A stretch of DNA of 64,000 nucleotides from Scytonema millei VB511283 (GTDB taxonomy: Bacteria > Cyanobacteriota > Cyanobacteriia > Cyanobacteriales > Chroococcidiopsidaceae): positions 442,242 to 506,241 of the forward strand of contig NZ_JTJC03000002.1 in the NCBI RefSeq assembly GCF_000817735.3, read 5' to 3'. The translations under genes and the position numbers were made by a program. Under the pieces are notes generated by a model. It did no database searches. It worked only from the letters and a program-made list of their open reading frames with translations, and was not told where the DNA came from. Shown piece by piece: positions 30,322 to 33,652 of this stretch. Position 1 is the first letter of the stretch. The number at the start of each line of letters is the position of its first letter.

Positions 30322-30460
30322 CGGACTAAATTTTCTGGAATCGAGCTGGGGAGTTTTGAAGATATAAGTAACAACGGTTCAATTCTAAATTTAAATCTCT
30401 ATGTTAAACCTGGGGTGCGTTTCTATAACTGCACCCCTTATTATTTGCGAATTATCGCCC

Positions 30461-30490
30461 CCTTTTTCAAGGGGGGTTGGGGGGATCGAG
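30461..30490. repeat. Family B half element
   Basis: CCCCCTTTTTCAAGGGGGGTTGGGGGGATCGAG is one side of the family B element, apparently truncated. Confidence 0.7.
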
Positions 30491-30639: not shown

Positions 30640-31560
30640 ATGAAGACACTCACAACACTTTTTAACGAAAGCCGCAGCGATCTACACTCAGAAATCGAGA
30701 GAGCGACTAGCCTAGAGCAAGTAGTTAAGGTGGTGCAGAACCGACTTGACGAACTTGAAAGAAGTTATGTTGGCGAACTCAGTGTAACTCAGGTGCGTTT
30801 GGCTTCCTTTTTTTTAGAAGTGCTGCGGCAGTCTCTAAATACTCTGACTGCGATCGATTCTACGCAAGATTTAAGTATAGAACGGGGACAAATTTTTAGT
30901 CAAACTCCTAAATTTTCGCCAAAAAGCTTAATTCTAAAACTGCTCCAAGGACTCAGTTGTATTGGAATTTTAGGAGCATTGTTCTCCTCGTATTCAAATT
31001 CTTCGCAAGTCTGGATTGCAATTTTGTTGCTCTTTCTACTTATTGGGCTAGAAGTGGTATTTCAACTCAGTGCCAGCCAAGAAAATCGCTTAGATTCTGC
31101 TGTGCTAAAAGAAATACTTCCGTCAAAATCGCAAATTGATAAAGCTACTTTTTTAAATTGTTTAAGCGATGCCCTAAATACTATCGACCTTGCCGTTGCC
31201 GCTTCAGAAACCAAGAAGACAATTGATACTAGTGGCATAGAAGAATTGCCTGAACTTTTGAATTTTCTCCAAAGACTCAGTGGCGCGTCATTTCTAGCTC
31301 AACCGCAAATGACGCTCGAACTGGTGAAACTTCTGCCGCAAATTTTAATGGAGCAGGGAATTAGAATTCAGATGTATCGACCGGATGACGAATCTAGCCG
31401 TCGCGAGTATTTTGACTTCGAGCCAAATATAGACCGCTCGGCTCAAGACTACATTACTATAACCCCTGCCTTATGGAAGGGCGATCGCCTGTTACTTCGC
31501 GGTCGAGTCATTGAGCCATCTCGTTCTAAATCTGAAAATGAAAATATTGTGTCATCGTGA
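30640..31560 (+). CDS. Membrane protein partnered with Hsp70-like ATPase
   Basis: The 306-residue protein has a charged helical N-terminal domain (residues 1-95, heptad-like). Two adjacent membrane helices follow at about residues 100-142 (LLQGLSCIGILGALFSS and VWIAILLLFLLIGLEVVFQL). The rest is a cytoplasmic domain of about 160 residues, which ends with ELVKLLPQILMEQGIRIQMYRP and ITPALWKGDRLLLRGRVIEP. That last segment slightly resembles the beta-wing end of GrpE, but I would not assign it. I recognise no family. The gene ends 65 bp before the Hsp70-like gene on the same strand, and the two probably work together. Confidence 0.7.
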   Translation: MKTLTTLFNESRSDLHSEIERATSLEQVVKVVQNRLDELERSYVGELSVTQVRLASFFLEVLRQSLNTLTAIDSTQDLSIERGQIFSQTPKFSPKSLILKLLQGLSCIGILGALFSSYSNSSQVWIAILLLFLLIGLEVVFQLSASQENRLDSAVLKEILPSKSQIDKATFLNCLSDALNTIDLAVAASETKKTIDTSGIEELPELLNFLQRLSGASFLAQPQMTLELVKLLPQILMEQGIRIQMYRPDDESSRREYFDFEPNIDRSAQDYITITPALWKGDRLLLRGRVIEPSRSKSENENIVSS

Positions 31561-31625
31561 GTTGGTATAGCATCACTTTTAAATTCGAGCGAGATTGAGA
31601 TTAGATATTACCTATAAATAATAGT

Positions 31626-33554
31626 ATGAACGTGAAAGTTTCCGAAATAATTGGTTTCGATTTGGGACATGGTGAAACAGCTGTGGCGAAAGCACCAGCT
31701 CAAAGTATTGAATCTCCTCAGATGCTAGAAGTAAATCATAAAAAAAACCAAATAACTGCACTTGGCTGGCATCCCGAACTAGGCTATCTTGTGGGAGAAC
31801 AAGCATTGATTCAAGCTGGTGTGACTCAATTAAAAATTGCTTTTAAGCAAAAACCAGATGAAGATCTAAATTCTAGAGAGACAATGCGTCGATTTCTAGA
31901 AACTTATTATCGCCTGCTGAAAGAAAGTAAACAAATTGAAGGTGGAACGGACAGTTATTTCTATGTTGGATGTCCTTCAGGGTGGACTTTGGACGACCGA
32001 GAGAAGTATCAACATTTATTAGAGTCAACTGGCATTCCATTATTAAGTGTCGTCCCTGAATCGCGGGCTGCTTTCATGCAAGCCAAAGAAGTCGGTAAGT
32101 TTGGCTACGACCAGCTCAAGTCATCAGTGCTGATTGTCGATATTGGTTCTTCGACTACAGATTTTACTCTAGTTAAGAGCTTTCATGAAATTCCCCTAGA
32201 TTTTGGTAGTAACGCTCTAGGAGCCAGTCTGATAGACAAGGCAATTTTTGCTCGTACTCTTGCTAACCACGAACAGAAAGTTTTACTAGAAAAAGTGTTT
32301 GCAGAATATCCCCATCATCAAGCACGGTGCGAACTTGCCTGTCGTAAAGCGAAAGAAGATTACTTTTCTAACGAACAGATATACAGCGATTCTCAATCCT
32401 TCGCACGCGGTTTTGAGTCGATTAACGAACAGATTTTTTTTATTCCTAAAGTCAATCGGCAAATTATTACGGAGATTTTAAACCAACCCTTACCCGAACT
32501 AGAAAATAAAAGTTGGCAAGAGTCGTATCGTCAAGCAGTCAATGAAGCAAAGGAAAAACTAGAAAAACTTGGTGTAACACCCAAAGTTTTATTAATGACG
32601 GGTGGAGCATCTCGCATGAGTTTTACGCGCCAAATTTGCGAAGAAATTTTTCCCGAACCTGAAACTCAAGTTCGTCCCGATCCAGAACCAGAACGATGCA
32701 TTGCATTAGGTCTAGCACGGGTAGGAAGATGGGAGCTACGCGCTAGTGCATTTAAAGCCGAAGTTGACAAACTATACGACTCGCACCAGATGAAAGAGGC
32801 GATCGCCAGAAATATTCCAGAGCTAATTAAGCTAATAACTCAGCCATTATCGATCGCTTTGGTTGAAAATGCTGTCAAACCCGGATTAAAAAACTGGAAA
32901 AACGGTCAAATCCGCACTCTGGCAGATCTGGAAAGTTGGATGAAAAGCCAAGCAGAACAGTGGCTAAAAAGCGATCGCGGTCGGCAACTCATCGATAATA
33001 AATGCGTGACTTGGTTTAATAGCAGCATTCAACCTGAAATCGCCGAGCGAACCGATCCAATTTGCCGTCAGTTTCAAATTCCTAGAAGCAGTTTAAGGCT
33101 AGAAAGTGGGATTGACCCAACTCTCGTCAATCCTGACTTACCGATAGGCGATGCTATCCTTGCCGATGCAGTGGCATTTACGATTAATTTGGTCATTGGC
33201 AGTGGTACTCTCGGTAGCATTATCGCTCTACTCTTAACTGGGCATTTAATTGTGCCGATCGCACTCGTTTATGGTGCAGCTCTCGTTGGTGGAGGAGTGG
33301 GCTTAAATCGGGAGAAAATTGAAGATGCGATTAAGGAAAAGCTGGATATTCCTAGTTGGATTCGTTTTGTGGCATTAGGAGATAAAACAATAGATAGTAT
33401 CTGTGACAAAATGCAGCCCGAATTAGAGTCAAGTCTGAGGGAAAAAATGACCCAAGAGCGGCAGGCTTTTGACGAGCTGATTGAGAAGATCGGGCATCAG
33501 GTGAAGAAAGCTTTGCATACCAAAGCAGAAGAGGTGACAATCCTGATTCAATAG
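31626..33554 (+). CDS. Hsp70/actin-fold ATPase with C-terminal membrane hairpin
   Basis: The 642-residue protein carries the Hsp70/actin nucleotide fold. Phosphate-1 is IGFDLGHGETAVA (residues 8-20), phosphate-2 is VLIVDIGSSTTDFTLV (about 169-184) and the adenosine motif is LLMTGGASRM (about 323). The substrate-binding beta-domain of DnaK is missing. In its place are a helical region and a glycine-rich double membrane segment at about residues 518-560 (IGSGTLGSIIALLLTG, VYGAALVGGGVG). A basic amphipathic helical tail of about 80 residues follows. It is thus a membrane-associated relative of DnaK, of unknown role. The upstream two-helix membrane protein is its likely partner. Confidence 0.85.
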   Translation: MNVKVSEIIGFDLGHGETAVAKAPAQSIESPQMLEVNHKKNQITALGWHPELGYLVGEQALIQAGVTQLKIAFKQKPDEDLNSRETMRRFLETYYRLLKESKQIEGGTDSYFYVGCPSGWTLDDREKYQHLLESTGIPLLSVVPESRAAFMQAKEVGKFGYDQLKSSVLIVDIGSSTTDFTLVKSFHEIPLDFGSNALGASLIDKAIFARTLANHEQKVLLEKVFAEYPHHQARCELACRKAKEDYFSNEQIYSDSQSFARGFESINEQIFFIPKVNRQIITEILNQPLPELENKSWQESYRQAVNEAKEKLEKLGVTPKVLLMTGGASRMSFTRQICEEIFPEPETQVRPDPEPERCIALGLARVGRWELRASAFKAEVDKLYDSHQMKEAIARNIPELIKLITQPLSIALVENAVKPGLKNWKNGQIRTLADLESWMKSQAEQWLKSDRGRQLIDNKCVTWFNSSIQPEIAERTDPICRQFQIPRSSLRLESGIDPTLVNPDLPIGDAILADAVAFTINLVIGSGTLGSIIALLLTGHLIVPIALVYGAALVGGGVGLNREKIEDAIKEKLDIPSWIRFVALGDKTIDSICDKMQPELESSLREKMTQERQAFDELIEKIGHQVKKALHTKAEEVTILIQ

Positions 33555-33585: not shown

Positions 33586-33652
33586 GATCCCCCCAACCCC
33601 CTTAAAAAGGGGGGCATTGTTTCACTCATTGTGAGGGGGCTAGAGGGGATCG
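33586..33652. repeat. Family B palindrome
   Basis: GATCCCCCCAACCCCCTTAAAAAGGGGGGCATTG...GAGGGGGCTAGAGGGGATCGAATC, directly downstream of the Hsp70-like gene. The right half is degenerate. Confidence 0.8.

What the first reader, a model, noticed from the sequence alone, without database searches (positions are those of the whole stretch)
30640..33554. Undescribed two-gene unit: membrane protein plus Hsp70-like ATPase with its own membrane hairpin
An Hsp70/actin-type ATPase with intact phosphate-1, phosphate-2 and adenosine motifs lacks a DnaK substrate-binding domain. Instead it has a glycine-rich double membrane segment (about residues 518-560) and a charged helical tail. Directly upstream (65 bp) is a 306-residue protein with two membrane helices of unknown family, whose last 20 residues vaguely recall the GrpE beta-wing. 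The pairing suggests a membrane-anchored chaperone or cytoskeletal-type machine with a dedicated partner.
Basis: partly seen in the sequence, partly recalled or inferred. Interest (0 to 1): 0.66.

Follow-up and report, generated by a model that had tools for sequence, protein, structure and literature searches.

The report
Cyanobacterial membrane Hsp70 with dedicated partner
Two neighbouring cyanobacterial genes, found together in nearly every genome checked and apparently moving as a pair, encode an Hsp70-type ATPase that carries its own membrane segment instead of the usual chaperone grip, and a second membrane protein that probably works as its control partner; what the pair does is not known.

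Summary
Both genes are at the stated coordinates. The second protein has an Hsp70-type ATPase domain, no substrate-binding domain, and a predicted membrane hairpin; the first has a predicted hairpin and matches no catalogued family above cut-off. The coupling is very strong: of 80 fetched relatives, 79 have the partner upstream (the exception has only about 220 bases of contig there). In 386 cyanobacterial genomes both occur in the same 14, on one strand and adjacent (one gene intervenes in one). Flanking genes are kept within the genus but not in four genomes of other genera, and one copy lies on a conjugative plasmid. GrpE likeness of the partner's C-terminus is suggestive only: Pfam GrpE matches 0 of 17 C-terminal domains at E up to 1; profile scores beat 150 of 150 shuffles but one unrelated ORF cluster scores level. 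Three of four divergent relatives lie beside a HerA-type ATPase and a putative metallopeptidase, resembling published NTP-dependent conflict systems. Best reading: a mobile membrane-tethered Hsp70 switch with a dedicated, possibly GrpE-like, cofactor. Seven full-text searches of one open-access library found no description of it.

The parts
30640..31560 (+). Partner gene (P1, 306 aa): N-terminal helices (1-76), predicted membrane hairpin (96-147), helical region (166-240), highly conserved C-terminal domain (255-294) with weak likeness to the GrpE beta-wing
   Evidence: likeness
30925..31080 (+). P1 predicted membrane hairpin (residues 96-147)
   Evidence: hydropathy
31402..31521 (+). P1 C-terminal domain (residues 255-294), the most conserved part of P1: mean majority identity 0.90, 17 of 40 columns invariant in 30 sequences
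31626..33554 (+). Hsp70-type ATPase gene (P2, 642 aa)
31626..32735 (+). P2 Hsp70-type nucleotide-binding domain (residues 1-370)
32736..33137 (+). P2 helical region (residues 371-504) in the place of a substrate-binding domain
   Evidence: model secondary structure
33141..33305 (+). P2 predicted membrane hairpin (residues 506-560)
   Evidence: hydropathy
33306..33551 (+). P2 helical tail (residues 561-642)

Best explanation
The two genes form one mobile unit that makes a membrane-tethered Hsp70-type switch. P2 binds and hydrolyses ATP with an Hsp70-type domain; the resulting movement is passed not to a peptide-binding domain, which it lacks, but to a helical stalk with a membrane hairpin. P1 sits in the same membrane by its own hairpin and holds its conserved C-terminal domain next to the ATPase domain, where it acts as the dedicated cofactor, most likely setting nucleotide exchange as GrpE does. 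The unit probably serves envelope stress or defence against mobile elements, because it is spread patchily and, in divergent relatives, lies beside a HerA-type ATPase and a putative metallopeptidase. Shown: the gene pair, its tight linkage, an ATPase domain nearest to Hsp70, the lack of a predicted substrate-binding domain, patchy and partly mobile distribution. Inferred: membrane insertion (hydropathy), ATP hydrolysis, physical association, exchange-factor role, stress or defence role.
For: 79 of 80 fetched relatives of P2 have P1 upstream; the gap is exactly 14 nt in 39 of 79 pairs, at most 230 nt in 76 and 408 nt at the widest. In 386 cyanobacterial genomes P2 occurs in 14 (matches below 1e-200) and the P1 C-terminal domain in the same 14 (matches below 1e-25), on the same strand just upstream, with one ORF between in G328. 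P1 and P2 distance matrices correlate at r = 0.94 over 76 pairs (500 label permutations, maximum 0.33), though shared descent alone can give this. ATPase domain: best fold match HSP110, Z 19.0 over 300 residues, rmsd 4.0; 49 of the 50 rows shown are Hsp70-family entries by title, the other being an unnamed chain of a ciliary complex (7n6g_6K). A broad profile finds 59 Hsp70-family sequences and one FtsA among the 60 PDB sequences shown. P1 C-terminal domain (34 sequences) against a 26-row cyanobacterial GrpE-superfamily alignment (one sequence is in it twice): 24.1, above 150 of 150 column shuffles, in the GrpE-like register at the C-terminus. In the window's genome two of three GrpE-type matches lie just upstream of an Hsp70 gene, as P1 does. 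Two same-genus genomes keep the window's flanks, four genomes of three other genera in the family share only the pair; one copy is on a conjugative plasmid near integrase genes. HerA and putative peptidase genes lie near 3 of the 4 divergent units.
Against: Pfam GrpE is not among the matches of 17 P1 C-terminal domains at E up to 1, nor among the 25 families shown for 30 full P1 members (12 more, single-member and weaker than E 0.14, were not shown). The C-terminal profile brought up no row in an open frame of GrpE size among the 7 weak rows in 386 genomes at E 0.05 and nothing from the PDB below E 1. Against single GrpE subfamilies the shuffles reach the observed score in 2 (canonical), 6, 6 and 18 of 150. 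A response-regulator-like ORF cluster scored 26.3 against the GrpE alignment, level with P1 at 26.4. The P1 model is poor (pLDDT 55), so its fold could not be tested. P2 also matches ParM and MreB profiles and a phage partition family. Of 20 P2-bearing genomes, 17 lack the linked HerA protein and the peptidase (16 close-type and G305; G172 has only a partial, unlinked, 34 percent HerA match), so the defence link rests on three divergent loci. PADLOC does not know either window protein.
Confidence: 0.5

Rival explanations
1. The ATPase is an actin-type polymerising protein (MreB/ParM-like) that forms filaments on the membrane, and P1 is its membrane adaptor or nucleator.
For: 25 of 27 P2 sequences touch ParM_N and 17 of 27 MreB_Mbl at E up to 1 (best 2e-7 for MreB_Mbl), against 6 of 27 for HSP70 (best 9e-7); PHROG partition protein E 3e-9; NCBIfam BeeR actin-like E 9e-4; Mbl and MreB chains among the first 50 Foldseek rows.
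Against: The profile that includes divergent relatives finds 59 Hsp70 sequences and one FtsA among 60 PDB sequences shown; 49 of the 50 best fold rows are Hsp70-family by title in that second look; a one-to-one partner and a long helical, hairpin-bearing C-terminus are not features recalled for MreB or ParM.
Confidence: 0.2
2. A membrane-remodelling machine analogous to dynamin-like proteins: ATP-driven stalk movement bends or seals membrane after damage, with P1 as the second half, comparable in logic to paired dynamin-like proteins such as LeoA/LeoB.
For: Layout of P2 (nucleotide domain, helical stalk, membrane hairpin, helical tail); a divergent P1 shows a weak PADLOC LeoB match over residues 94-215, E 1e-5; a plasmid Hsp70 protein in a related HerA operon is fused to a GTPase and a region weakly like DUF697.
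Against: The LeoB match covers a glycine-rich hairpin, where composition alone can score; no GTPase domain was found in P1 or P2 or in the seven neighbours scanned.
Confidence: 0.15
3. An ordinary accessory chaperone: P2 is a degenerate DnaK recruited to the thylakoid or plasma membrane for protein quality control, without any defence role.
For: Many intact copies in Nostocales and other filamentous cyanobacteria with matching P1 and P2 divergence; cyanobacteria use a DnaK system for pilus-linked polysaccharide secretion (PMC9239167, passages seen).
Against: No predicted substrate-binding domain; patchy presence, 14 of 386 genomes and 7 of 19 of the window's family, the window's own included; changing neighbourhoods and a plasmid copy.
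Confidence: 0.15

Closest known systems
Hsp70 (DnaK) with GrpE
   Same: Hsp70-type nucleotide-binding domain; small partner gene directly upstream, the same order as two grpE-Hsp70 pairs in this genome; partner's conserved C-terminus weakly GrpE-like
   Different: No predicted substrate-binding domain, a predicted membrane hairpin in both proteins; P1 not recognised as GrpE by Pfam; no J-domain among the seven neighbours scanned
GAP1-N2 double-GTPase conflict systems with HSP70 and GrpE (Kaur et al. 2020, PMC7159879; passages seen)
   Same: HSP70 plus GrpE genes, some with a second HSP70 lacking its peptide-binding domain; membrane components; a plasmid operon with a HerA relative has an Hsp70-GTPase fusion, a protein weakly like DO-GTPases (below cut-off) and GUN4
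   Different: No GTPase among the seven neighbours of the window unit that were scanned; the paper says its HSP70-GrpE theme is predominantly actinobacterial and firmicute
MreB / ParM actin-like proteins
   Same: Same ATPase superfamily; weak profile matches
   Different: Best fold rows and broad-profile hits are Hsp70; a C-terminal 270-residue part with hairpin is not recalled for those families
HerA/DUF87-type ATPase operons on cyanobacterial plasmids
   Same: Three divergent P1-P2 units lie upstream of a HerA protein where two plasmids have Hsp70-TPR or Hsp70-GTPase proteins further upstream; all five loci share a downstream 101-aa protein and putative metallopeptidase
   Different: Neither that HerA protein nor the peptidase was found in the window's own genome

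Membership tests
Hsp70 | Hsp70/actin ATPase motifs (phosphate 1, phosphate 2, adenosine; names recalled) | tested here: met
   Cores invariant in 27 aligned sequences and mostly kept in three divergent ones (the adenosine motif reads TGSA in two of them)
Hsp70 | Hsp70-type fold of the nucleotide-binding domain | tested here: met
   Z 19.0 to 16.5 over about 300 residues in the 50 rows shown, 49 of them Hsp70-family by title; model moderate (pLDDT 67, residues 1-75 below 50); sequence profile agrees
Hsp70 | Beta-sandwich substrate-binding domain and lid | tested here: not met
   Residues 371-505 modelled as helices without strands, block pLDDT 68-88 up to residue 500; then a hydrophobic hairpin
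Hsp70 | Pfam HSP70 gathering score | tested here: not met
   No PF00012 match for the window protein at E up to 1; 6 of 27 members match at E up to 1; one divergent relative passes the cut-off (L119, 23.4 vs 20.6 bits)
GrpE | Pfam GrpE match | tested here: not met
   0 of 17 C-terminal domains at E up to 1; not among the 25 of 37 families shown for 30 full members
GrpE | C-terminal beta-wing | tested here: inconclusive
   Profile-profile 24.1 with 0 of 150 shuffles reaching it for the pooled alignment, but 2, 6, 6 and 18 of 150 for single subfamilies, and one unrelated ORF cluster scores level; P1 model unusable there
GrpE | Long dimerising helices before the wing | tested here: inconclusive
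   Helices modelled at 168-188, 204-218, 222-230 and 232-238, low to middling confidence
GrpE | Stimulates ADP release from an Hsp70 | not testable with these tools
   needs biochemistry
MreB/ParM | ATP-dependent filament formation | not testable with these tools
   the window protein's profile matches are below curated cut-offs
GAP1-N2 double-GTPase conflict systems | Double-GTPase and GAP1 genes beside the Hsp70-GrpE pair | tested here: not met
   Seven neighbours between 25159 and 36468 scanned: two acyltransferase-type proteins, metallo-beta-lactamase fold, alpha/beta hydrolase, short-chain dehydrogenase, pentapeptide repeats, saccharopine dehydrogenase domain

The most novel reading that the evidence does not exclude
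A new class of Hsp70 machine in which the ATPase has traded its peptide-binding domain for a membrane hairpin and its exchange factor is itself membrane-embedded, so that Hsp70-type nucleotide cycling acts on the membrane or on membrane partners; it spreads as a two-gene cassette and in divergent forms powers or gates a HerA-plus-metallopeptidase defence operon.
Probability: 0.3. Interest if true: 0.78.

Novelty: new variant of a known kind. Interest (0 to 1): 0.52.

Why it matters
Hsp70 proteins are normally soluble and work through a peptide-binding domain (established knowledge, recalled). A conserved Hsp70-type ATPase wired to a membrane hairpin, with a constant membrane partner, would be a distinct way of using the Hsp70 cycle. 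The divergent loci with a HerA-type ATPase and a putative peptidase make a defence role directly testable in filamentous cyanobacteria.

Tried and rejected
GrpE by Pfam, by PDB profile search, and by a six-frame search of 386 genomes with the P1 C-terminal profile: no GrpE match seen (in one search only 25 of 37 families are shown). A terminal-inverted-repeat transposon: the G-rich repeat right of the unit is one of 170 places genome-wide (80 forward, 90 reverse, up to 2 mismatches) against 10 for the reversed control; the inverted copy on the left was seen by eye, so the pair of repeats says nothing special. Viral origin: no relative of P2 in viral contigs (55 stretches matched two patterns, none confirmed). 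The first profile comparison was apparently run in global mode by mistake and was discarded in favour. The 50 ORF clusters used as decoys include P1 and P2 themselves and probably some spurious antisense ORFs. A MreB identity is not excluded by the missing rows, since only chains ranked by Foldseek were aligned. Rows set aside: the short weak matches of 20 genomes (E 3.7e-6 to 9.7e-4) and one extra weak row in G111; seven weak rows (9.5e-4 to 0.0425, open frames of 48 or 471-657 aa); one weak extra genome (G156, E 1.6e-4, residues 54-132) and a second weak match in G125. One search misses G111, whose P1 was first seen by eye and is confirmed. Not all first-look candidates were scored in the genome searches, so absences are not certain. 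One search kept the best 80 of 85 confirmed stretches. Paper searches gave no paper describing this pair; only listings were seen except for PMC7159879 and PMC9239167, of which passages were read.
Full report
What is there. The window (one contig of a cyanobacterial genome, G000:C2:442242-506241) holds two same-strand ORFs at 30640-31560 (P1, 306 aa) and 31626-33554 (P2, 642 aa), 65 bases apart. The seven neighbours scanned are a mixed set of enzymes with no obvious link: two acyltransferase-type proteins, a metallo-beta-lactamase fold protein, an alpha/beta hydrolase, a short-chain dehydrogenase, a pentapeptide-repeat protein and a protein with a saccharopine-dehydrogenase domain. The genome search found one match to P2, itself.

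P2 anatomy. Residues 1-370 form an Hsp70-type nucleotide-binding domain. The cores of its ATP-binding motifs are invariant among 27 aligned sequences and mostly kept in divergent ones. The AlphaFold2 model is of moderate quality (mean pLDDT 67, residues 1-75 below 50). The structural second look gives Hsp70-family entries in 49 of 50 rows by title (the other is an unnamed chain of a ciliary complex), best Z 19.0 with 300 residues at 4.0 A. Foldseek itself lists Mbl and MreB chains a little lower. A profile that includes divergent relatives hits 59 Hsp70-family sequences and one FtsA in the 60 rows shown, while close relatives taken singly match ParM, MreB and HSP70 profiles weakly (25, 17 and 6 of 27), and the window protein matches a phage partition family at 3e-9. 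I therefore take it as Hsp70-type, with some doubt. After the ATPase domain the model is helical to residue 505, with no strands, so no substrate-binding domain is predicted. A long hydrophobic stretch follows (506-560) and then a helical tail.

P1 anatomy. Helices at 1-76, two hydrophobic segments (96-116 and 119-147), a helical part (166-240) and a C-terminal domain (255-294) that is the best conserved part: mean majority identity 0.90 and 17 of 40 columns invariant in 30 sequences. No library recognises it above cut-off.

Linkage. Of 80 loci fetched with P2 (the best 80 of 85 confirmed stretches, 65-75 percent identical), 79 have P1 upstream; the exception, L005, has only about 220 bases of contig before P2. 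In 39 of 79 pairs the gap is exactly 14 nt; it is at most 230 nt in 76 and 408 nt at the widest. In an even sample of 386 cyanobacterial genomes, P2 proper is found in 14 (20 more genomes have only short weak matches), and the P1 C-terminal domain in exactly the same 14 (7 further weak rows set aside). In all 14 the two lie on the same strand, P1 first; in G328 a 185-aa ORF with weak DUF697 likeness lies between. Pairwise distances of P1 and P2 correlate at 0.94 over 76 pairs, which common descent alone could produce.

Mobility. The pair is in 7 of 19 genomes of the window's family, the window's own included. Two same-genus genomes keep the window's flanking genes; four genomes of three other genera in the family share only the pair in the roughly 20-kb stretches compared. 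Among the 80 loci, whose stretches reach up to 6 kb to each side, only two share any of the ten other window genes tested. One copy is on a conjugative plasmid of Calothrix brevissima NIES-22 close to integrase genes. P1 and P2 have 42 percent G+C against 45 percent for the window, a weak sign.

The GrpE question. Against: Pfam GrpE is absent from the matches of 17 P1 C-terminal domains at E up to 1 and from the 25 of 37 families shown for 30 full members; a six-frame search of 386 genomes with the C-terminal profile brings up no open frame of GrpE size; the PDB search with it finds nothing below E 1. For: profile-profile comparison of that domain with a 26-row GrpE-superfamily alignment from cyanobacteria (one sequence twice) scores 24.1, where 150 shuffles had mean 12.5 and maximum 23.1. 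With single subfamilies the shuffles reach the observed score in 2 (canonical GrpE), 6, 6 and 18 of 150. Among 50 ORF clusters from the loci P1 ranks first (26.4), but a response-regulator-like cluster has 26.3. The alignment is in the expected register, and gene order matches two grpE-Hsp70 pairs in the same genome. I hold the GrpE-like identity at about 35 percent, a little lower than I first put it, because of the subfamily controls.

Divergent relatives. Four of the 14 genomes have a divergent form; the G328 protein is 34 percent identical to P2, 39 percent to the G305 and 28 percent to the G111 form. In G262 the ATPase domain is doubled within one 1078-aa protein. In G262, G328 and G111 the unit is followed by a HerA/DUF87-type ATPase of about 905 aa and further on by a 101-aa protein and a putative zinc metallopeptidase (in G111 transposon-like genes lie between, by eye). 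In G305 the contig ends 222 bases after P2 and no such HerA or peptidase was found elsewhere in the genome. The same downstream genes occur on plasmids of Planktothrix agardhii and Anabaena cylindrica, but with other Hsp70 proteins upstream: one fused to TPR repeats, the other to a GTPase and a weakly DUF697-like region, with a neighbour weakly like DO-GTPases, below cut-off. Of 20 P2-bearing genomes, 3 have this HerA type and the peptidase; a partial, more distant HerA match in G172 is on another contig. This links the family to the NTP-dependent conflict systems of Kaur et al. 2020 (PMC7159879), where HSP70 with GrpE, and HSP70 without its peptide-binding domain, occur beside double-GTPases (passages). 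None of those extra genes is among the seven neighbours of the window's unit that were scanned.

Mechanism. The most economical reading is a membrane-tethered Hsp70-type ATPase with a membrane-tethered dedicated cofactor. ATP binding and hydrolysis in P2 would move its helical stalk and hairpin, and P1 would sense or reset the nucleotide state. Membrane insertion, association and the role of P1 are inferences; so is the suggestion that the unit serves defence or envelope stress. Filament formation and dynamin-like membrane remodelling remain rivals.

Novelty. No library or paper search named the pair (paper searches, in open-access papers only). I rate it a new variant of a known kind: an Hsp70-type ATPase system of unusual architecture. 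Interest is moderate because the coupling is firm but function and the GrpE link are open.

Noticed in passing
L149:5194-6027 (own genome, contig C13); L151, L152, L153, L154, L159: Proteins with an N-terminal helix-turn-helix-like region (by eye) and a GrpE-like C-terminus, several of them between or beside Dps-like genes (by eye); they pass or approach the GrpE cut-off.
   Followed up: partly
L169, L181 (overlaps L170), L116, L117, L119: Modular HerA/DUF87 loci with different upstream Hsp70-type modules and a shared downstream 101-aa protein plus putative zinc metallopeptidase.
   Followed up: partly
L116:4771-8007: A P2 relative with two ATPase domains in one chain.
   Followed up: no
L168:7018-8001: P1 on the Calothrix plasmid is found in two pieces and its annotated gene is short, so it may be frame-broken.
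   Followed up: no
L117:4676-5578: Divergent P1 has a weak PADLOC LeoB match (E 1e-5) over its glycine-rich membrane hairpin.
   Followed up: no
window 30458-30486 and 33586-33615: Inverted copies of a G-rich repeat flank the unit; the right-hand type has 170 places genome-wide with up to 2 mismatches, control 10.
   Followed up: yes
G000:C3:661149-663746 (L158): A second grpE-like gene directly upstream of a second-type Hsp70 gene (profile positions 1-583 of 599) in the same genome.
   Followed up: no
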